Shown piece by piece: positions 36,955 to 48,283 of a DNA stretch of 64,000 nt (its first letter is position 1; each line of letters begins with the position of its first letter). Made by a program: the position numbers and the translations under genes. This stretch comes from Acidobacteriaceae bacterium (lineage in GTDB: Bacteria > Acidobacteriota > Terriglobia > Terriglobales > Acidobacteriaceae): the NCBI GenBank assembly GCA_003156805.1, contig PMHV01000007.1:62155-126154 (forward strand), in the 5' to 3' direction. The notes under the pieces were generated by a model. That model did not search any database. It was given only the letters and a program-made list of their open reading frames with translations, and was not told the origin of the DNA.

Positions 36955-38547
36955 TCACTGCTCTAGCTCCGCCGCACGCAGAAAGTCGTAGTTTCCAGCA
37001 GGATTCAATTGCAGATTGTGGACGCGCCGGTTGTGGACGAGAACGTTATCGAGATACCAGAGATCGATGTAGGGAAGCTCCGCGGCCAGAATGCTTTGCA
37101 CTTCGGCATAGAGCGGCTTGCGCACGCTGGGATCGACTTCGCGGCGGGCGCGATCAATGAGAGCGTCGACGCGCGGATTCGAGTAATAGCCGCGGTTGGC
37201 GCCGTTGGGCGGGAACTTCGCCGAGTCAAAGGCGTATTCGAAGATATCGGGATCTTCGTTGCCGCCAATCCAGCGAAGACTGTAGAGCTGAAAAGCTCCG
37301 TGAGTCACGTCGCTGAAGAAAGTTGCTGACTCGAAACTGCGAATGTCGAGCGCAATCCCCACTTCACGCAGCTGCTGCTGTATGACGGCGACCATCAAAC
37401 GGGTGCTCTCGGTTGTGGAAGTCTTCATGGTGATGTGAAAGCGGACGCCGTTTATCGCAGGATAGCCCGCCGCATCCAGCAGCTTGCGGGCTTTGCCGGG
37501 ATCGTGGTCGTAGCGCGGCACGTCTCCGTTGTAAGCCCAGCTCTGCGACGGCAGAACGCTGCGCGCCGGTTGGGCTTCGCCGCGCCATAAATATTCGATC
37601 ATCGGCGCGCGGTCGAGGGCATAGGCGATGGCCTGACGCACGTGCACATCTTTCAGGATGGGATCGCGCAGATTGAATCCCAGATACTGCATCTCGGTGC
37701 CGGGTTCGGACTCGACGGCAAGGGACGGGTCGCGCTGCAGAGTCAGCACAGTGTCGGGTGGGAATGAGGCGTTGATAATGAGGTCCGCACTGCCTTTGCG
37801 AAGTTCGAGAGCTTGCGTAGTCGCGTCGGGAACCACGGCAAAGCGCACGCGCGCGAGGTGAGGCTTCTCGCCCCAGTAATCGTCGTTGCGCTCGATGACG
37901 ATTTCTTTGTCCGTTTCGGCGGAGACAAACTTGAACGGCCCAGAGCCGATGGGATAGCTCGCGATTTCATTTCCGCTGCCGTAAGGGACGATGCCGATTG
38001 CACCGTCGGACAGATTCCACAGCAGGGTGGCGTCCCGCTCTTTCAGATGAAAGATCACGGTGTAATCCTCCGGTGCATCGATGTGATCGACGAAACGGTA
38101 GGCCGCTGTCTTCGTACTCCGAATCTTGCCTTGGAGCAGAGAATCGAAGGTCCATTTCACATCGCGCGAAGTGAGCGGGCGGCCATCGTGGAACGTGACG
38201 CCGTGATGCAGGTGAAAAACATAGGTGAGCGGATCGGGAATCTCCCAGCGTTCGGCGAGGCCGGGAGCAACGTTTAACTTGCTTCCGCGCGAAAGCAAAT
38301 CGTCGAAGATCAAGTTGTCGATGCGCTCCGAATATGCATCCAGACCTACGCGTGGATCCAGGTTTGTGGGACTCGATTCGATCACCATCACCAGCGTGTT
38401 GGGATCGGGCTTGCTGGCGCAGGAGAGCAGGGAAGACAGCAGGGCAAGCGCGGCGAAGGAACTACCGAGCTGGAATGAATGAGACTTGGTCCAGCGGTTG
38501 AACGCCGGAAAGTTCGGCCGGCCGCAACATGCACGAGCGATACGCAT
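36955..38547 (-). CDS. Peptide-type ABC substrate-binding lipoprotein (SBP family 5)
   Basis: A 530-residue exported solute-binding protein of the DppA/OppA group. After a long N-terminus (~30 residues) comes a lipoprotein signal ending 'LLSSLLSC', so it should be anchored to a membrane. 'TNLDPRVGLDAYSERIDNLIFDDLL', 'YVFHLHHGVTFHDGRPLTSRDVKWTFDSLL', 'PIGSGPFKFV' and 'VRQAIAYALDRAPMIEYLWRGEAQPARSVLP' are family hallmarks. No permease or ATPase genes accompany it. It overlaps DUF1697 (TGATG at 38545-38549) and the SRPBCC-like gene, downstream of nagZ-anmK, which suggests binding of muropeptides; this is inference. Confidence 0.85.
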   Translation of the reverse strand: MRIARACCGRPNFPAFNRWTKSHSFQLGSSFAALALLSSLLSCASKPDPNTLVMVIESSPTNLDPRVGLDAYSERIDNLIFDDLLSRGSKLNVAPGLAERWEIPDPLTYVFHLHHGVTFHDGRPLTSRDVKWTFDSLLQGKIRSTKTAAYRFVDHIDAPEDYTVIFHLKERDATLLWNLSDGAIGIVPYGSGNEIASYPIGSGPFKFVSAETDKEIVIERNDDYWGEKPHLARVRFAVVPDATTQALELRKGSADLIINASFPPDTVLTLQRDPSLAVESEPGTEMQYLGFNLRDPILKDVHVRQAIAYALDRAPMIEYLWRGEAQPARSVLPSQSWAYNGDVPRYDHDPGKARKLLDAAGYPAINGVRFHITMKTSTTESTRLMVAVIQQQLREVGIALDIRSFESATFFSDVTHGAFQLYSLRWIGGNEDPDIFEYAFDSAKFPPNGANRGYYSNPRVDALIDRARREVDPSVRKPLYAEVQSILAAELPYIDLWYLDNVLVHNRRVHNLQLNPAGNYDFLRAAELEQ

Positions 38548-39095
38548 CAGGCGCAGCTCAGGGACATCTCGTAGAGTTTGTTGACTGTGTTCCAGTTGCG
38601 AGTTGTGGTGACTACCGACAGCGCGCGGTCGAGAGGACTTTTCATCAAACTACTTTCGGAGGCGCCGTTGGGAAGGTAGAGATAAATCTCCTGGAGGCAA
38701 CAACGAGACTCGTCGGGTTTTGTGGTTAACGTTTCTAATCTCTTTATGGCGGAAGGAGCGAGCTTCGCGGATAGAAACATAACATGAAGCTTTGCCGGGT
38801 CGATTTCGGGCCGCTTGAAGAACGGGTTGTTTTCGATCATCTGGCGTAATTCGTCGCCGGTGCGAGAGATGACGGAGGACGAGAATCCGAAGTCGCTGAG
38901 AATTCTTTCTTCGATTCGCTTGGACAGTGCACTGGAGGAACGCTTAGCGGTTTTGAAAACCACATTGCCGCTCTGGATATAGGTTTTGACCTGCTCGAAA
39001 CCCAACGCCTCGAACGACCTTCGAAGAGCGTCCATCTTCATTCTCTTATTCTTGCCGACGTTAATTCCGCGCAGCATCGAGATGTAAACCGGCAT
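38547..39095 (-). CDS. DUF1697 family protein
   Basis: A 182-residue cytoplasmic protein. 'YISMLRGINVGKNKRMKMDALRRSFEALGFEQVKTYIQSGNVVF' at the N-terminus is the strongly conserved start of DUF1697 proteins, and the 'IYLYLPNGASESSLM' and 'TTRNWNTVNKLYEM' segments agree. Biochemical role unknown. Its stop overlaps the start of the substrate-binding protein gene (TGATG), and it follows anmK by 40 bases. Confidence 0.88.
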   Translation of the reverse strand: MPVYISMLRGINVGKNKRMKMDALRRSFEALGFEQVKTYIQSGNVVFKTAKRSSSALSKRIEERILSDFGFSSSVISRTGDELRQMIENNPFFKRPEIDPAKLHVMFLSAKLAPSAIKRLETLTTKPDESRCCLQEIYLYLPNGASESSLMKSPLDRALSVVTTTRNWNTVNKLYEMSLSCA

Positions 39096-39135
39096 GATTC
39101 ACCTGCTCACTGTTTATTGACGGCTGTTCAGTCAC

Positions 39136-40383
39136 CTAAGGATACGAGATTGTTCCCAGCACAGCCGGGTGTTTCGCTCCGGTCGCCGAAGGAACATTCG
39201 ACGGCCGCCGATGCCAGGTTTGGTGGGCAAGCACGGCAAAGGCAACAGCCTCTTTCGCTGCTGAGGGCAAGCCGAACTCCTCACTCAGCCGCACCTGCAA
39301 ACTGAGCGGAGCGAGTTCGCGGGCCAGCATTGCGATCAGAGTGTGGTTCCTTGCTCCTCCGCCGGAAACAATTATCTCGCGATACGAGGCCTTGGGTCTG
39401 TCTTTTGCGCGCTTCAGCACAAACCGATGTATCGCATCCGCGATCGACCGGGCAGTCAGGGCGGTCGCCGTGGCTACAATATCCTGCTTGCGTGCGCGGC
39501 CCGAAAGGTGGAGCAATTGTTGCACGAACTCGCGTCCGAATTGCTCGCGCCCGGCGCTTTTCGGCGGCCTTTGCCGGAAAAACTTTACGCGCATCACGCG
39601 GCCAAGCACATCCTCATCGGGCACTCCCGAAGCTGCAATGTTTCCATCACGATCATAGGGCCGGCCGAATAGTTTTTCCGTCACGGCATCGATGACCATA
39701 TTCCCAGGCCCGGTGTCGAAGGCGATCACATCCGCGGCGGCCGACTTTGCGGGTATTGCGGTCAGATTTGCGATTCCACCAATATTTTGTACCACGCGCC
39801 CAGCGCGCGGACTGGCGAACAGCAAGTAGTCGAGAAAAGGAACCAGCGGCGCACCATTGCCGCCCACAGCCATGTCAGCGGGACGAAAGTCGGAGACTAC
39901 GGGCACGCCCACGCGGGCGGCAATTACGGCGGCCTCACCCGTCTGCCAAGTTACGGCCAACTTGCGTCCGAGAAAGCGCCGCGCTGCGCTCTGATGATAA
40001 AGCGTCTGCCCATGACAGCCCACCAGTTGAACTCTTAGTTTGAATTGATGCTGCGCGGCCAACACGGCATCGGCATAAAGCTCGCCCAGCAGAAAATTGA
40101 GCCGAGCCAGATCGGCCACGCTTGCCCGCGGCGCATTCATCGCCGCCAGCACAGCGGCGCGAACGTTCCTTGGATAAGGATATTCATCGTGTCCAAGCAA
40201 ATCGAGCTTTGTGTGAACAGGGGCGGACCGTCCGCGCGATTCGGGGACTGCATTATTGGCCTGGTGTGGCCCGACTTCGAGACGACCGCTTATGCGCACC
40301 AGCGCCACGTTGATGCCGTCAGCGGACGTCCCGCTCATCACGCCCGCGACGATTATGCCCGCGTCCCTCGGTCTTAACGCCAT
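39136..40383 (-). CDS. anmK: Anhydro-N-acetylmuramic acid kinase AnmK
   Basis: A 415-residue sugar kinase of the ASKHA fold that phosphorylates and opens 1,6-anhydroMurNAc during cell-wall recycling. 'VAGVMSGTSADGINVALVRI' near 12-31, 'VGCHGQTLYH' near 118, 'TWQTGEAAVIAARVGVPVVSDFRPADMAVGGNGAPLVPF' near 145-183, 'NIGGIANLT', 'FDTGPGNMVID' and 'VSGGGARNHTL' are complete. ATG 40383 directly follows the nagZ stop (TGAATG), so the two recycling genes are coupled. Confidence 0.95.
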   Translation of the reverse strand: MALRPRDAGIIVAGVMSGTSADGINVALVRISGRLEVGPHQANNAVPESRGRSAPVHTKLDLLGHDEYPYPRNVRAAVLAAMNAPRASVADLARLNFLLGELYADAVLAAQHQFKLRVQLVGCHGQTLYHQSAARRFLGRKLAVTWQTGEAAVIAARVGVPVVSDFRPADMAVGGNGAPLVPFLDYLLFASPRAGRVVQNIGGIANLTAIPAKSAAADVIAFDTGPGNMVIDAVTEKLFGRPYDRDGNIAASGVPDEDVLGRVMRVKFFRQRPPKSAGREQFGREFVQQLLHLSGRARKQDIVATATALTARSIADAIHRFVLKRAKDRPKASYREIIVSGGGARNHTLIAMLARELAPLSLQVRLSEEFGLPSAAKEAVAFAVLAHQTWHRRPSNVPSATGAKHPAVLGTISYP

Positions 40384-41538
40384 TCACGCGCCCGCCTTGT
40401 CAGCAGATGCTTCGGCAGTTGTCGGCTCGGCAGTGATCGACTCGGCATTCGGCGCACGCAGCCGGACCTCTTCACTGAATTCCCAGAGGTTGCGCGTGAG
40501 CCTTTTCACAGTCGTGTCGGAGGGCGCTTTCCCGCGGCGCAGCAGCTTCGCCGATTTATTCTTGAACGTTAGCACGCGCCGCGCCGATTCGTCCACGCGC
40601 CGCGCGAACTTTGGATTCTTTTCTGCGGTCTTCACCAGTTCTTCGTAAGCGTGTGCGATGTAATCTTCGCGATGGCAGACCAGACACAAATCTCCGCCGG
40701 ATCGAACAAACTTAACGGCGGCCTGGCCGATGGGCGCGGCTGATAGAACGCCGCCCATTTCTAAATCATCGGATACGATCAGATTGCGATATCCGATACG
40801 CTTGCGGAGGATATCGCTGATCCATTTCCTGGAGAGTGACGCCGGTGTCTTATCGCCTGTCACTTGCGGGTATGCCGCGTGCGAAATCATCACGAAGGGC
40901 ATCTGCGGTTGAAGAAACCGATAGGGAACGATGTCTTCGGCCCAAAGTTTCTTGAGTGGTTTTTCGATGACCGGCAATTCGTGATGGCTGTCAAGTTTCC
41001 CCTCGCCGAGGCCGGGAAAATGCTTGCCGCAGCCCAGCACGCCCGCGATGCGCAGGCCCGCGAGAAAATCTCGCGCATATTTCACGACTTCTTTCGGATC
41101 GGCCGAAACCGATCGCGAACTCATGACGCTGCGCGAAGCTTCGAAGGCAAGGTCGAGCGCGGGAGCGAAATCAACCTTAAATCCAAGCGAACGGCAGTTC
41201 TCGCCGATCATCTGTCCGTGCTTGCGGAAAAGCTTGCGGTCGCCGGTGGCGTATACATCCGCGGCTGAAGGTGCTGGTCCCAGCACTTCGCGAAAGCGAT
41301 CCACGCGGCCGCCTTCGAGATCGACGCAGGTAAACAGGGGCGTGGAAATGCATTTCCGGCAATCGTGCAGCAGTCGCCATGTCTGCTCGACGCTCTTGAT
41401 GTTGCGCGCGAACAGAATTACTCCGGCCGGCTGGATGCGCGTGAGCAGGGAACTGATCTGCGGCGTCATCTCTGTGCCGTCGAAGCCGACGATCAGGAGT
41501 TGGCCGACTTCCGGGGATGGCCGCGAGGATCGGGTCAT
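40384..41538 (-). CDS. nagZ: Beta-N-acetylhexosaminidase NagZ (GH3)
   Basis: A 384-residue glycoside hydrolase family 3 enzyme. 'LLIVGFDGTEMTPQISSLLTRIQPAGVILFARN' opens the barrel; 'KHFPGLGEGKLDSHHELPVI' carries the NagZ loop histidine; 'LIVSDDLEMGGV' holds the nucleophilic aspartate. It removes GlcNAc from anhydro-muropeptides in the cytoplasm. No signal peptide is visible. The C-terminus is extended by an alanine/threonine-rich tail. ATG 41538 overlaps the stop of the upstream membrane-protein gene (ATGA). Confidence 0.93.
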   Translation of the reverse strand: MTRSSRPSPEVGQLLIVGFDGTEMTPQISSLLTRIQPAGVILFARNIKSVEQTWRLLHDCRKCISTPLFTCVDLEGGRVDRFREVLGPAPSAADVYATGDRKLFRKHGQMIGENCRSLGFKVDFAPALDLAFEASRSVMSSRSVSADPKEVVKYARDFLAGLRIAGVLGCGKHFPGLGEGKLDSHHELPVIEKPLKKLWAEDIVPYRFLQPQMPFVMISHAAYPQVTGDKTPASLSRKWISDILRKRIGYRNLIVSDDLEMGGVLSAAPIGQAAVKFVRSGGDLCLVCHREDYIAHAYEELVKTAEKNPKFARRVDESARRVLTFKNKSAKLLRRGKAPSDTTVKRLTRNLWEFSEEVRLRAPNAESITAEPTTAEASADKAGA

Positions 41539-42011
41539 CGCTCTCCCGCTCGATTCTGAGATGGGGGAACCCAGCGAATCTTACGCCTGAACCATTCGGC
41601 AATTGCGACAAGGAAGATCACAAGGGCGATTTGCCCAGCCCCTGATCCAGCGACGGCCATTGTATGCCGGGTGACTGGTGAAACATGAAGCCAACTCAGC
41701 GCGACCCTGTAGACGAGGTCCGCCCCCATCAAAACACATGCGAGCTTTACGGAATTCTTAGGCAACGTAATTGCAATAATAAAAAAATAGATGGCAGTGA
41801 TGACCACTGAAACCTTCATGAAAATACCGAAGAAGCTCTTGTGCAGAGGCTCCGGCGCGATGAAATGACCTTGAACAAAGCTGCGGATTTCGCCAGTCAG
41901 GAACAGAGCGCAGAATAGGAAAAGGACGGCTAAAAAGACAGTGGTGAACCGATCGCTATCTATAGTGATTTCGCCATTGTCTTCGGGCTCGGTTTTCGGC
42001 TCCTGGGTCAT
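41535..42011 (-). CDS. Four-helix membrane protein of unknown function
   Basis: A 158-residue protein with an acidic N-terminal tail (~22 residues), about four membrane helices (roughly 24-42, 60-84, 88-106, 120-140) and a basic C-terminal tail. I do not recognise a family. Its start overlaps the mutS stop and its stop overlaps the nagZ start, both by ATGA, so it must be made from the same transcript as both. Between a repair gene and wall-recycling genes, a transport or envelope role is conceivable, but no residue supports it. Confidence 0.75.
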
Positions 42012-44692
42012 TCAATTTGCCTCTTCAGCTCCGCCAGCAGATTCAGTGCTTCCAGCGGCGTGAGCCGGTTCAAATCCACTTCGCGCAACTTTTCCAGAAC
42101 GGGCTGCGAAAGGGGCGTGAAAATGGTCAACTGCGCCGGAGGAGGCGTCGCGCCCGGCGAAAGATGTCCCGTGGCCAACCGCTCGACGGATTCATGCTCG
42201 GCCAATACCTCTCGCGCCCGCGCAATTACTTCGTTTGGCAGTCCCGCCAGCTTGGCGACTTCGATGCCGTAGCTGCGGTCGGCGGCTCCGGGCTCAACTT
42301 TGCGCAGGAATGCGATGCCGCCGCTGGTTTCTCTCACCGAGACGTGACAGTTCTTGACGCCCGAAAGCTGCTCGGCCAGTTCCGTCAATTCGAAATAGTG
42401 CGTGGCGAACAAAGTCTTCGCCCGCACACGCGCGTGAAGATACTCGATCGCGGCCCAGGCAATCGCTAGGCCGTCGTAAGTCGACGTGCCGCGACCAACT
42501 TCATCGAGAAGAATCAAAGATCGCGGTGTTGCGGTATGCAGAATCGCCGCCGTTTCCGTCATTTCGACCATGAAAGTCGAGCGCCCGCGTGCCAGATTGT
42601 CGCTGGCGCCGATGCGAGTAAAAACTCGATCCACCACGCTCAGTCGTGCCGAGCGCGCCGGTACAAACGATCCCATCTGAGCCAGAATCACAATCAGCGC
42701 GGCTTGTCTCAAGTAGGTCGACTTGCCGCCCATATTTGGCCCGGTCAAAAGCATGATCGTCTGCGTGGTCGAGTTCAAGTAGAGGTCGTTCGGCACGAAG
42801 CGCTCAGTACCGCCGGCCATCTCCTGCTGCTCGATCACAGGATGACGGCCTTCGACAATCTCCAGATCTCCCACGTGGCCGTCACGAGAGTCGAGAAACT
42901 GCGGCCGGCGATAGTTATGCAGCGCAGCGAGGTGCGCCATCGACGCCAGTACATCCACTTCGGCTAAGGCCAGCGCCGTCTGCCGGATTCGTTTTGCCTC
43001 CCTCGCAATCGTGGAACGCAATTCTGTAAACAGCCGCCGCTCGATCTCGACAATTGTTTCCTGAGCGTCGAGAATCTTGGCCTCGTACCCCTTCAACTCT
43101 GGGGTGGTGAAGCGCTCGGCGCCCACCAGGGTTTGCTTGCGGTCATAATCCCCAGGCACGAGATGGAGGTTCGGTTTCGAGACTTCAATGTAGTAGCCAA
43201 AAATGGAATTGAACTTGACCTTCAGCGATGCGATTCCGGTGCGTGAGCGCTCGCGCTGTTCGATCTGGGCCAGCACTTGCTTGCTGTTGCGGGAGAGATC
43301 GCGCAGTTCGTCCAGCTCGCTGGACACTCCCGAAGCAATCACGCCGCCATCAGCAAAGCTCAGCGGCGGCTCGGGAACAATTGTTTTTTCAATGCGCTCG
43401 CGCAGGTCCACAAGTTCATCGAGGGATGCGTGCAACGTCTTCAGGCGTTCCGCCGTCATGCGAGCCACGGCAGCTTTGACCGCCGGAATTTTTCCCACGG
43501 ATGCCGCGAGCGCCAGCACGTCGCGCGGGTTCGCCGTCTCCAGTGTGATGCGGCTCAAGAGCCGCTCCAGATCGAGCACACCATCGAGCGCTCGGCGCAA
43601 CTCCTCTCGGGCGACGAGGTTCTTCACGCCCGCTTCCACGGCATCGAGCCGGCCGGTGATTTCGCTCAGATCGAGAGACGGCCGCAGCAGCCACGAACGC
43701 AGTAGCCGTTTGCCCATCGGAGTAACCGCACAATCGATGGAACGAAACAAAGTAACGCCGGCATCTGCGCCCGCGAACAGCGGCTCAATCAGTTCCAGAT
43801 TCCGCACGGTGACCGCATCCAGCACCAGGCAGTTGTGGCGCTCGTACCAGCCGATGCGGTCCACGTGATCGAGCGAGCCGCGCTGCGTGGAGCGCACGTA
43901 GTAGAGAATCGCTCCCGCCGCGGCCGCCGCCGCAGTTCGACCGGCAAGGCCAAAGCCCTCGAGTGACAAGACTCCGAAATGATTTTCCAGCAGCGGAATG
44001 GCGTGGTCGGGAGCGAAGATCCAATCTTCGACGGGAGTCTCGGTGCAGGTGGCTCCTGCAGCTCTGGGCCGAGGGGAAAGAGCAGCCTGAGAAGGCCGCG
44101 ACCCTGCCTCAAACAACGGCGCGGAAGAACCATATAACAGCTCTTTGGGGCGCAACTGCTCTAACTCTTCCTGCACCCGACGTAGCGCGCTCTCGCCGGT
44201 AAATTCGGTGGCCCGGAATTCTCCCGTGGAAACATCCAGCGCTGCGAAGCCCACGGCGTCGCCCACCTGGGCCAGCGCCGCCAAAAAATTGTTTTCTTCC
44301 GATCCCAGCGACGCATCGGCTGCGGTTCCGGGAGTGACCACGCGCGTCACTTCGCGCCGCACCAATTTCCCGGCGATCTGTTTTCCAGCCATCTGCTTGT
44401 GGGCGAGGTGAGCATCTTCCATCTGCTCGCAGATGGCGACCTTGTATCCCTTGCGAATGAGTTTGCCGATGTAACCCTCGGCCGCGTGATAAGGCACGCC
44501 ACACATGGGCACGGCGATGCCTTTTTCTTTATTACGCGAGGTGAGTGTGATCTGAAGTTCCTTGGCGGCCAGCACGGCATCGTCGAAGAAAAGCTCGTAG
44601 AAATCACCCAGGCGGAAGAACAGCAATGCGGAAGGGTGTTCGTTCTTGATGGCGGCATACTGCCGCATCAGCGGCGTGGAGGGCTCGGTCAT
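42008..44692 (-). CDS. mutS: DNA mismatch repair protein MutS
   Basis: An 894-residue MutS that recognises mismatches and starts repair. The N-terminal mismatch-binding motif 'FYELFFDDA' near 31-39, connector, lever and clamp regions, then the ATPase with Walker A 'GPNMGGKST', the 'STFMVEM' segment, Walker B '[23 protein letters not shown]' and '[11 protein letters not shown]' are all present. A ~25-residue insertion ('[27 protein letters not shown]') lies in the connector region. ATG 44692. It appears to head the minus-strand run to ymdB and is divergent from the GalT-like gene with a 118-base shared upstream region. Confidence 0.97.
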
Positions 44693-44810: not shown

Positions 44811-45800
44811 ATGGAACTTCGCAAAGACCCGATCACGCGCTCGTGGGTCATTACTGGCGACGATCCCGCCGAGATCACGCCGCAAGCCGCATGCCGTTTT
44901 TGTCCCCAATCTCCGGCCGTGACTCAGGTGATTGCCGCGATGCCCAGCGCGGTGGGAACGACCTGGTCGGCGAGGGCCGTGGTACATCCCACTCCGCTCT
45001 ATCACATTGAAGGGGAACCCGGACGCCGCGGTGATGGCATCTACGATCGCATGCGTTCCGTCGGCGCCCACGAGGTTCTTGTGGAGAACCGGCACCACGA
45101 CCGCCATCTATGGCGAGCCACCGACGCGGAAATCGAACTCTTCCTCCGCCTGGCAGCCGAGCGCATCCTCGATCTCAAACGCGACGCGCGCATCAAATAC
45201 GTCAGCTTCTTCAAAGACTACGGACCCAATGCTGGCCAGGAATTCAGCCACCCCACCTCACAAATCACCGCCACGATGTTCGTGCCCCGGCGCGTGCTTT
45301 ACGAACTGCGCGCCGCGCGCGAATATTTTCAGGCCAAAGAACGCTGCGTTTTTTGCGACATCGTGAGCCAGGAAGAGCGCCAGGCTCTGCGCGTGATCGA
45401 AACCCGCGGAGACTACATTGCCCTTTGCCCCTACGCGCCCCGCGTGCCCTATGAAACCTGGATTTTGCCCCGCACCCACATGGCTGGCTTCGGACGCACG
45501 GGCGTGGTGCGGCCCGGCAACCTGATCGATTTCGCCGCCATTTTGCGGCGCACGCTGCAACGCGTGCGCACCATTACGGAAGAATTTCATCTCGTGTTGC
45601 ACACCGCTCCCAACAGTTTTCATCCCTCCAAGAGCCTCGGTTATTGGAAGACCATTGACGACGACTATCACTGGCACGTCGAGATTCTTCCCGTCGTCGG
45701 CGCCAAGGCGCGTTCTTATACCTTCAAGGAGGTGTACTATTCGCCGGTGAGTTCGGAGACCGCCGTTAAGGCATTGCGGGAGGCCCGAATCGATGCGTGA
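44811..45800 (+). CDS. GalT-like HIT-superfamily nucleotidyltransferase lacking the usual nucleophilic His
   Basis: A 329-residue member of the galactose-1-phosphate uridylyltransferase family. 'LRKDPITRSWVI' at the start, 'HEVLVENRHHDRHLW', two CxxC pairs (C28/C31 and C179/C182) and H287-W-H289 ('YHWHVEILPV') follow the GalT plan. The active-site motif usually reads His-Pro-His-x-Gln with the second His forming the nucleotidyl intermediate; here it is H147-P-T-S-Q151, so the nucleophile position is Thr149. The enzyme may use a different mechanism (for example phosphorylase-like) or be inactive as a transferase. ATG 44811, divergent from mutS. No other Leloir genes are near. Confidence 0.75.
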   Translation: MELRKDPITRSWVITGDDPAEITPQAACRFCPQSPAVTQVIAAMPSAVGTTWSARAVVHPTPLYHIEGEPGRRGDGIYDRMRSVGAHEVLVENRHHDRHLWRATDAEIELFLRLAAERILDLKRDARIKYVSFFKDYGPNAGQEFSHPTSQITATMFVPRRVLYELRAAREYFQAKERCVFCDIVSQEERQALRVIETRGDYIALCPYAPRVPYETWILPRTHMAGFGRTGVVRPGNLIDFAAILRRTLQRVRTITEEFHLVLHTAPNSFHPSKSLGYWKTIDDDYHWHVEILPVVGAKARSYTFKEVYYSPVSSETAVKALREARIDA

Positions 45801-46972: not shown

Positions 46973-48283
46973 ATGACAAAGCAAAAGTCCGCAATCGCTC
47001 GGCTTCGTGCCGCTTTCGTGGCATCGCTAGTATTTGCCAGCGCAGGTCTTGCTTCCGCGCAGACTGAGACCGTGATTCACGCGTTCCCGTCCGAGAGCAA
47101 AACGGACGGAGCCTATCCTTTCAGTTCGCTCACCTACAGCGGTGGTGTTTTATACGGCACCACGAACGACGGCGGCCAACACAATGCTGGCGCTGTTTAC
47201 AGGCTCTTGCCGCCATCGACAGAAGGCGGAACGTGGAAAGAAGGACTCATATCTTCTTTCGGACACACGAACGGACAGTGGCCACAGGCAGCCGTGCTTC
47301 GCGACGCAAACACTGGCAACATTTACGGGACAACCGCGGGAGGCGGCGCGAGCAATTATTGGGGCGCCGTTTACGAACTCACACCTCCTGTCTCCGGGAA
47401 TCACTGGACGGAAACGGTGATCTACAGCTTCACCGGGCAGAGTGATGGTGGATTTCCCAGATCGAGCCTCATTTCCGACGGGAAAGGAAATCTCTATGGC
47501 TCGACTGACCAGGGCGGCAAGGGTGGTGGCGGCGTGGTCTACGAGCTGTCGCCTCCGGCTCAATCCAGCGATCCGTGGACTGAGACGGTGATTCACGGAT
47601 TCACTTTCGGCGGAGCCGACGGAAGCGGGCCTTCCAACCTTATTTTCGACAGCCTCGGAGCGCTGTACGGCGCGACGCAGTCTGGAGGAGACGCCACCTG
47701 CAACGCCGGTTGCGGCACCGTGTTCAAGCTGACTCCGCCAGCAAAGCAGGGCGGAGCCTGGACCGAAAGCGTTCTCTACAGCTTCCATGCGACTGACGGA
47801 CTTTCTCCCGAAGGCGGCCTGATTTTTGACGGCAGCGGTGCGCTTTATGGGACCGCCAATGACGGTGGCCAGGGGCAGACGCGAAATTATTGCTGTGGCA
47901 CGGTTTTTCAGCTGACGCCGCCCGCCGGTGACGGGGTTCCGTGGACCTTGACCACTCTCTATGCGTTTAGCGGCGGCAGCGACGGCGGTTATCCCACGGG
48001 CGGAGTGATCTTCGATAGTACGGGTACGCTTTACGGCACAACCACGGGCGGCGGCTCTCTGCCCTGTGGTCCCGAACATAACGGTTGCGGCGTGGTCTTC
48101 GCGTTGAATCCACCGTCGACGCAGGGCGGTGCTTGGACCGAACAGGTGCTGCATGCCTTTGTTGGCGGCGATGATGGAGAAGATCCCCTGGCTGGCTTGC
48201 TTCTCGTCGGCAACAACCTGTACGGAACCACGGGCTACGGCGGCCCGGCTGACACCGGAATCGTGTTTGAGATCACGCCGTAG
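46973..48283 (+). CDS. Exported GloVer tandem-repeat protein
   Basis: A 436-residue protein with a signal peptide ('AAFVASLVFASAGLASA') and then about seven repeats of ~55 residues, each built as 'GG(L/V)IFDSxGxLYGTTxxGG...GxVFxLTPP' followed by 'W(T)ETVLYxFxGGxDG'. This is the choice-of-anchor tandem repeat GloVer family, common in Acidobacteria; seven repeats suggest a closed beta-propeller. No catalytic residues or anchor are seen; the protein ends with the last repeat. ATG 46973 follows GAGGAGGAG at a normal distance. Function unknown; surface or matrix binding is a guess. Confidence 0.8.
   Translation: MTKQKSAIARLRAAFVASLVFASAGLASAQTETVIHAFPSESKTDGAYPFSSLTYSGGVLYGTTNDGGQHNAGAVYRLLPPSTEGGTWKEGLISSFGHTNGQWPQAAVLRDANTGNIYGTTAGGGASNYWGAVYELTPPVSGNHWTETVIYSFTGQSDGGFPRSSLISDGKGNLYGSTDQGGKGGGGVVYELSPPAQSSDPWTETVIHGFTFGGADGSGPSNLIFDSLGALYGATQSGGDATCNAGCGTVFKLTPPAKQGGAWTESVLYSFHATDGLSPEGGLIFDGSGALYGTANDGGQGQTRNYCCGTVFQLTPPAGDGVPWTLTTLYAFSGGSDGGYPTGGVIFDSTGTLYGTTTGGGSLPCGPEHNGCGVVFALNPPSTQGGAWTEQVLHAFVGGDDGEDPLAGLLLVGNNLYGTTGYGGPADTGIVFEITP

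What the first reader, a model, noticed from the sequence alone, without database searches (positions are those of the whole stretch)
44811..45800. GalT-like enzyme with Thr in place of the nucleophilic His
The His-Pro-His-x-Gln motif is changed to H147-P-T-S-Q while the two CxxC pairs and the HWH motif remain. This argues for altered chemistry in a still-structured enzyme.
Basis: partly seen in the sequence, partly recalled or inferred. Interest (0 to 1): 0.5.

Follow-up and report, generated by a model that had tools for sequence, protein, structure and literature searches.

The report
GalT-like protein without its catalytic histidine
A soil-bacterium relative of the galactose-processing enzyme GalT has lost the histidine that does the chemistry, together with most of the sugar-nucleotide contacts, yet the gene is strongly preserved, so the old enzyme fold has probably been given another job.

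Summary
In detail: 44811-45800 (+) encodes a 329-residue GalT-fold protein with H147-P-T149-S-Q151 where GalT has H-P-H-x-Q. It is not an isolated error. All 32 genus-level orthologue rows read lack His at 149 (28 Thr, 3 Ser, 1 Cys). Among 185 distinct subfamily rows, 81 lack it: T 50, N 12, Y 7, S 6, V 3, C 2, A 1. Asn, Val and Ala cannot be nucleophiles, so Thr is not a substitute nucleophile. In the subfamily there are at least 11 His/non-His changes; column 149 evolves at the median rate, while seven of eight presumed zinc ligands never change. The rest of the GalT pocket had already changed: RxxR[PL] 0 of 185, Asn77 to His in 169, Ser161 to Glu/Asp in 165, hexose loop GFE to KSY..KEVY. 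The His-poor group is under strong purifying selection (median dN/dS 0.056), and the genome has a separate GalT with the full motif. Best reading: a zinc-stabilised GalT-fold protein that left covalent nucleotidyl transfer and keeps a rebuilt pocket for an unknown ligand. Real, moderately interesting, a new variant of a known kind.

The parts
44811..45800 (+). GalT/ADP-glucose-phosphorylase-fold protein, 329 aa, lacking the nucleophilic His
   Evidence: Pfam DUF4931_N above cut-off, GalP_UDP_tr_C below it
44892..44903 (+). C28-x-x-C31, with H96 and H147 the presumed zinc site 1
   Evidence: C28 185/185, C31 169/185 (16 Glu/Asp), H96 and H147 185/185
44985..45002 (+). H59 and Y64: subfamily signature; E. 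coli Asn77 aligns with H59
   Evidence: H59 169/185 vs Asn 35/36 in the canonical set; Y64 166/185 vs Leu 100%; HMMER alignment to 1hxp
45216..45242 (+). D136 (E. coli Asn153) and E144 (E. coli Ser161)
   Evidence: column 136: N 128, D 49 of 185; column 144: E 141, D 24 of 185 vs S/T 34 of 36 canonical
45249..45263 (+). H147-P-T149-S-Q151, the HPHxQ motif with Thr at the nucleophile column
45345..45356 (+). C179-x-x-C182, with H223 and H287 the presumed zinc site 2
   Evidence: all four 185/185
45669..45683 (+). H287-W288-H289-V-E291, HIT-like strand of domain 2
   Evidence: H287, W288, H289 185/185, E291 184/185; HIT proteins align to domain 2
45705..45740 (+). rebuilt C-terminal loop, residues 299-310 (KARSYTFKEVYY), in place of the hexose loop GFEWGTGFYIN
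   Evidence: S302 164, Y303 167, K306 163, E307 168 of 185
42008..44692 (-). mutS, divergently transcribed neighbour
   Evidence: Pfam MutS domains I-V; divergent mutS within 1500 bases upstream in 64 of 69 f1-like rows, 0 of 144 other rows

Best explanation
This is a GalT-fold protein of a lineage seen here only within one class of Acidobacteriota (Terriglobia, by the record titles) that has left the covalent nucleotidyl-histidine (ping-pong) reaction. Shown by sequence: most of the residues that bind nucleotide phosphates and hexose in GalT are replaced in the whole subfamily, a different set (H59, Y64, E/D144, S302, Y303, K306, E307) is conserved in their place, the zinc ligands and HWHxE are kept, and the nucleophile His was lost many times, ending as Thr/Ser/Asn in this family. 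Inferred: two structural zincs hold the fold; the rebuilt pocket binds a ligand other than a nucleotide sugar without a covalent intermediate, so the protein acts as a ligand-binding or partner-binding protein, or as an enzyme of different, His149-independent chemistry. The ligand is not known.
For: Column 149 in 185 subfamily rows: H 104, T 50, N 12, Y 7, S 6, V 3, C 2, A 1. On a 109-row subfamily tree built without the motif columns: 11 His/non-His changes and 18 residue changes at 149 against a median of 19 per column; no change at C28, H96, H147, C179, C182, H223, H287, W288, H289 (C31 changes twice). Counting losses only: 14 on 130 rows, 13 of them in the subfamily. RxxR[PL] motif (E. coli Arg28/Arg31): 0 of 185 versus 29 of 36 canonical. 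The pocket signature is alike with or without His149: HY[ED]SYKE in 80 of 104 His rows and 71 of 81 non-His rows. Median dN/dS 0.056 over 124 usable pairs of 134 in the f1-like group of 73 rows, 69 of them without His. The GalT fold is kept. The genome has a GalT with HPHGQ, an ADP-glucose-phosphorylase-like paralogue with HAHSQ, and a galactokinase.
Against: His is kept in 100 of 112 subfamily rows outside the f1-like group, and in all rows of one 28-row clade of the tree, so there the His may still work. Asn153 (128 of 185) and Gln168 (144 of 185) equivalents are partly kept. At least 20 genomes of the window's own family have no match at E 1e-66, so the function is dispensable in some relatives. 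No ligand, activity, interaction or expression is known; no model coordinates were available, so pocket statements rest on alignment to structures, not on geometry.
Confidence: 0.7

Rival explanations
1. Altered-nucleophile enzyme: Thr149 (or Ser/Cys) replaces His and forms a nucleotidyl-Thr intermediate.
For: Thr is the commonest residue in the f1-like group (50 of 73 rows) and Ser/Cys occur too; Gln151 is mostly kept (144 of 185).
Against: Orthologues of the same group have Asn 9, Val 2, Ala 1 and His 4 of 73, and Tyr occurs elsewhere (7 of 112); phosphate-binding residues are replaced; the column evolves at the median rate.
Confidence: 0.05
2. Classical-type enzyme family with a new substrate that still uses His149 in the His-bearing members; in the window's lineage the enzyme died and the protein keeps only a structural or regulatory role (pseudoenzyme of a younger enzyme).
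For: His retained in 100 of 112 rows outside the f1-like group; no losses in a 28-row clade.
Against: Loss of His is not accompanied by loss of the pocket signature (71 of 81 non-His rows keep it), nor by weak selection (dN/dS 0.056); repeated single losses in other families; Glu/Asp at the Ser161 column also in His-bearing members.
Confidence: 0.2
3. The active site has moved to domain 2, where H287-W-H289-V-E291 sits like a HIT-protein histidine triad and H289 is in the HIT nucleophile position.
For: H287, W288, H289 invariant, E291 184 of 185, H264 184 of 185; domain 2 aligns with HIT proteins, among them zinc-bound 3o0m; H260 173 of 185 against Asn 36 of 36 in the canonical set.
Against: H289 and E291 are also in 29 and 28 of 36 canonical proteins, so they are not special to this subfamily; the third triad residue is Glu, not His; no geometry was available.
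Confidence: 0.07
4. Decaying gene or assembly artefact.
For: None beyond the odd motif.
Against: 32 of 32 genus-level rows read share the non-His state; all four Thr codons occur and dN/dS is 0.056.
Confidence: 0.01

Closest known systems
ADP-glucose phosphorylase At5g18200 (PDB 1z84, 1zwj, 2h39)
   Same: Whole-length relative (E 3.3e-79 with profile A1), same fold (Z 33.3 to 2h39), both CxxC pairs and their His partners by alignment
   Different: 1z84 has the second His of the motif (SHSHSQ), RAKRP, Ala-Ser at columns 143-144 and a GFE loop; the window protein has none of these
GalT, hexose-1-phosphate uridylyltransferase (E. coli 1hxp/1gup, human 5in3)
   Same: Fold (Z 30.5 to 31.5), the first His of HPHxQ, Gln at the Gln168 column
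   Different: Nucleophile, Arg28/Arg31, Asn77, Ser161 and the hexose loop replaced; NCBIfam GalT models below cut-off (75.3 vs 448; 62.8 vs 102.1 bits)
DUF4931 (Bacillus cereus 4qvu)
   Same: Pfam DUF4931_N above cut-off over residues 88-153 (26.7 vs 24.1 bits)
   Different: Z 19.3 over 212 residues, less similar than GalT and ADP-glucose phosphorylase; named as domain of unknown function
CWF19-type proteins of the intron-lariat spliceosome (chains in 8ro1 and 6id0)
   Same: Part of the fold (Z 9.3 and 8.8). That these chains are CWF19-like and act inside a complex is recalled, not shown by the call
   Different: Eukaryotic and remote; only a possible precedent for a non-metabolic use of the fold
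Own-genome paralogues at C31 and C60
   Same: GalT family (PF02744 above cut-off)
   Different: Canonical motifs HAHSQ and HPHGQ

Membership tests
GalT (hexose-1-phosphate uridylyltransferase) | GalT fold of two HIT-like halves | tested here: met
   pLDDT 90.6; Z 30.8 to 1gup, 31.5 to 5in3
GalT (hexose-1-phosphate uridylyltransferase) | HPHxQ with nucleophilic second His | tested here: not met
   H147-P-T149-S-Q151
GalT (hexose-1-phosphate uridylyltransferase) | UDP-hexose contacts Arg28, Arg31, Asn77, Ser161 (Asn77 as uridine contact is recalled) | tested here: not met
   RxxR[PL] 0 of 185 rows, window included; H59 for Asn77; E144 for Ser161
GalT (hexose-1-phosphate uridylyltransferase) | hexose loop (human Lys334, Phe335, Val337, Tyr339, Glu340, Gln346; GFEWGTG in the relatives sampled here) | tested here: not met
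   SYTFKEVYY
GalT (hexose-1-phosphate uridylyltransferase) | NCBIfam equivalog cut-off | tested here: not met
   75.3 of 448 and 62.8 of 102.1 bits
GalT (hexose-1-phosphate uridylyltransferase) | uridylyl transfer activity | not testable with these tools
   needs protein
ADP-glucose phosphorylase (At5g18200 type) | overall fold and two CxxC/His/His metal sites | tested here: met
   (by sequence and fold; metals not observed)
ADP-glucose phosphorylase (At5g18200 type) | nucleophilic His (second His of the motif) | tested here: not met
   Thr149 aligned to it
ADP-glucose phosphorylase (At5g18200 type) | phosphorolysis of ADP-glucose | not testable with these tools
   needs protein
HIT hydrolase (through domain 2) | HxHxH(x) triad | tested here: inconclusive
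   HWHVE: third His is Glu; HIT proteins align to domain 2
DUF4931_N (Pfam PF16285) | gathering score | tested here: met
   26.7 against 24.1 bits, residues 88-153 only

The most novel reading that the evidence does not exclude
The rebuilt, conserved pocket (H59, Y64, E144, K/R301-S-Y303, K306-E307, with the zinc-held fold) is the site of a chemistry or a ligand-sensing role not yet described for any GalT/HIT protein, and it arose before the nucleophile was lost, so a nucleotidyl-transferase fold was converted to a His-independent function in one bacterial class.
Probability: 0.3. Interest if true: 0.7.

Novelty: new variant of a known kind. Interest (0 to 1): 0.5.

Why it matters
GalT's nucleophilic His defines its mechanism. 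Here is a bacterial subfamily in which that residue drifts while the fold, the metal ligands and a different pocket stay under strong selection, with lineages that still have it. It is a usable natural series for asking how an enzyme fold is converted to another function, and a warning that a 'galactose-1-phosphate uridylyltransferase' label given by similarity alone could be wrong for these proteins.

Tried and rejected
Thr as substitute nucleophile: rejected because orthologues carry Asn, Val and Ala, and Tyr elsewhere. Sequencing error or pseudogene: rejected. Misalignment: no gap in G142-Q151 against 1z84 and 1hxp, and H147 is invariant, so no other His fits. Functional clue from neighbours: a mechanical gene call on 38 stretches (it sometimes put antisense frames in place of the GalT gene, so it is rough) and Pfam on seven window neighbours gave mutS, a GH3 hydrolase, AnmK, a VTT-domain protein, an HhH-GPD repair protein and two proteins without a family; relatives have hem- and ccs-type genes or a DUF218-like gene nearby (these three named by eye, not by a search). 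Nothing is constant across the subfamily. Heterodimer with an active paralogue, each lending half a site: judged unlikely because both the nucleophile half and the hexose loop are changed (inference).

Literature: searched the PMC library; 'galactose-1-phosphate uridylyltransferase' with 'pseudoenzyme' gave 0 papers and with 'koribacter versatilis' 0 papers. I saw no report of this subfamily in those listings, several of which were capped (for example 12 listed of 5,991); most subscription papers are not held. Only PMC5081055 was opened (passages, and its section 7); the rest were seen as search listings.

Limits: the canonical comparison set (36 rows) was picked by its GFE loop, so its own 100% at columns 301-303 is by construction; the Arg, Asn77, Ser161 and His contrasts are not, and the set includes 5 Ile149 rows and 1 Cys149 row. 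Of 221 subfamily rows (225 bits or more, over 300 residues) 36 duplicates were dropped; shorter rows and relatives that fit neither set (for example L036-L039, L042, L044, L289, L291) were not counted. Genomes can occur both in the genome search and in genome contigs. Not every hit was fetched; of the genus-level orthologues, four full-length ones (G006, G013, G016, G032) were not. Notebook: one entry.

Full report
Observation. The frame 44811-45800 on the + strand encodes 329 residues from ATG. The motif is H147-P148-T149-S150-Q151; the codon for Thr149, ACC, lies at 45255-45257. Both CxxC pairs (28-31 and 179-182) and H287-W-H289 are there. The closest solved structures are the Arabidopsis ADP-glucose phosphorylase At5g18200 (E about 8e-24), a uridylyltransferase (6k5z/6k9z, about 2e-20) and E. 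coli GalT (1.7e-9). With a profile of 68 relatives the match to 1z84 reaches 3.3e-79. Residue-by-residue alignments put H147 on the first His of the motif (a zinc ligand, His164 in E. coli) and T149 on the nucleophile. The roles of His164, His166 and the metal ligands are taken from PMC5081055 (passages).

Fold. An AlphaFold model from the alignment has mean pLDDT 90.6 and pTM 0.90. It matches 6k5z (Z 34.0, 300 residues, rmsd 2.2), 2h39 (Z 33.3), human GALT 5in3 (31.5), E. coli 1gup (30.8) and, less well, DUF4931 4qvu (19.3); HIT proteins, some of them zinc-bound, match domain 2. So the protein is predicted to be a folded GalT relative.

Not an isolated change. In the window's genus all 32 orthologue rows read lack His at 149: 28 Thr, 3 Ser, 1 Cys (rows L002-L030, L045, L050, L063; four further full-length hits were not fetched). 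Wider sampling (relatives; 299 genomes of the class; 80 named contigs) gave 185 distinct subfamily rows: His 104, Thr 50, Asn 12, Tyr 7, Ser 6, Val 3, Cys 2, Ala 1. The f1-like group, which holds the window (73 rows above 440 bits), has His in 4 rows; the other 112 have it in 100. The nearest named relatives, 76-80% identical, include Candidatus Sulfotelmatobacter and Acidobacteriaceae MAGs.

How often, and how fast. On a quick maximum-likelihood tree of 130 rows, built with the motif columns left out, the fewest His/non-His changes are 12; within the 109-row subfamily they are 11. If His is never regained there are 14 losses, 13 in the subfamily. Column 149 has 18 residue changes against a median of 19 for all columns, whereas C28, H96, H147, C179, C182, H223, H287, W288, H289 and W279 have none and C31 has 2. 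The losses outside the f1-like group are mostly Tyr (7) and Asn (3), one base from His; within it Asn (AAC/AAT, 9 rows) is a possible step towards Thr and Ser (codons; the path is inference). A residue that wanders through Thr, Ser, Asn, Ala, Val, Cys and Tyr cannot be a conserved nucleophile.

The rest of the pocket. In E. coli GalT, Arg28, Arg31, Gly159 and Ser161 contact UDP-glucose, and in human GALT Glc-1-P is held by Lys334, Phe335, Val337, Tyr339, Glu340 and Gln346 of one chain with Gln188 and Asn173 of the other (PMC5081055, section 7). In the subfamily the RxxR[PL] motif is in 0 of 185 rows (29 of 36 canonical); H59 stands for Asn77 in 169 of 185; column 144 (Ser161) is Glu in 141 and Asp in 24; the loop GFEWGTGFYIN becomes [KR]SYxxKEVY[YF] (S302 164, Y303 167, K306 163, E307 168 of 185). 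Asn153 (128 N, 49 D) and Gln168 (144 Q, 39 E) are partly kept, Gly159 is kept in 166. The canonical set was picked by its GFE loop, so only the subfamily side of the loop contrast is a free observation. These changes are alike in rows with and without His149: the signature HY[ED]SYKE is in 80 of 104 and 71 of 81. So the pocket was most likely rebuilt first, and the His then became dispensable. An acid where Ser161 met a phosphate, and the loss of both Arg, argue against binding a nucleotide diphosphate sugar in the old way (inference).

Selection. In the f1-like group the median dN/dS is 0.056 (Nei-Gojobori) over 124 usable pairs of 134 with 86 to 99.5% identity. The gene is not decaying. A divergent mutS lies within 1500 bases upstream in 64 of the 69 f1-like rows that have at least 300 bases there, and in 0 of 144 other rows: a conserved place, but no functional hint. 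The subfamily is not universal: 125 of 299 class genomes match at E 1e-66 or better (this cut could also pass a few canonical relatives, as one outside the class reached 2.6e-69), and at least 20 genomes of the window's own family do not. Of the 72 genomes outside the class that matched, 16 rows were fetched: none has the KEVY loop, and 15 of 16 have His.

The genome's other GalT genes. The genome carries a GalT with HPHGQ (C60), an ADP-glucose-phosphorylase-like paralogue with HAHSQ (C31) and a galactokinase-family gene. The galactose pathway therefore need not depend on the window protein (inference).

Reading. Most likely the protein is a zinc-stabilised GalT-fold dimer (dimer by analogy) whose cleft has been rebuilt for a different ligand and which no longer forms a nucleotidyl-His intermediate. 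Whether it binds, senses, scaffolds or catalyses something else cannot be told from sequence. The main doubt is the His-bearing members: His is kept in 100 of 112 rows outside the f1-like group, so a His-dependent activity may survive there, which would make the window's lineage a secondary pseudoenzyme. A move of the active site to the HWHxE strand of domain 2 is possible but not specially supported, because the same residues are common in canonical relatives (29 and 28 of 36).

Noticed in passing
L053, L061, L064, L286, L290 (and fragment L040): A second GalT-like clade, with a canonical-type GFE loop (GFEW or GFER where printed) and one extra residue before the motif, has H-S/A-I-S-Q: Ile at the nucleophile column. 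Another independent loss.
   Followed up: partly
L276 (genome G192, contig C6:195900-198300): A relative with the canonical GASLD and AGFEWGTGFYIN motifs has HPCSQ, Cys for the nucleophile.
   Followed up: no
L093, L098, L103, L105, L107, L108, L110, L112, L114, L118, L121, L126 and others: In one group the first CxxC is CxxE or CxxD (16 of 185 rows), so a zinc ligand appears to have become an acid.
   Followed up: partly
L291 and L289 (outside the class, same phylum): Distant GalT-like proteins with HPFSR and HPHSK in place of HPHSQ.
   Followed up: no
window 46973-48283 (+): 436-aa protein with seven stretches matching the GloVer tandem-repeat model (TIGR03803, E 3e-53).
   Followed up: no
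window 36955-44692 (-): Run of a protein related to peptide/nickel substrate-binding models (all below their cut-offs), an unnamed ORF, AnmK, a GH3 hydrolase, a small ORF without a family and MutS; AnmK, GH3 and MutS homologues recur in this order at the locus in other genera of the family. Possible link to cell-wall recycling, unproven.
   Followed up: partly
L239 and L254: Contigs titled Bacillota and Betaproteobacteria carry copies 51% and 48% identical to the window, like the acidobacterial rows around them; probably mislabelled or contaminated bins.
   Followed up: no
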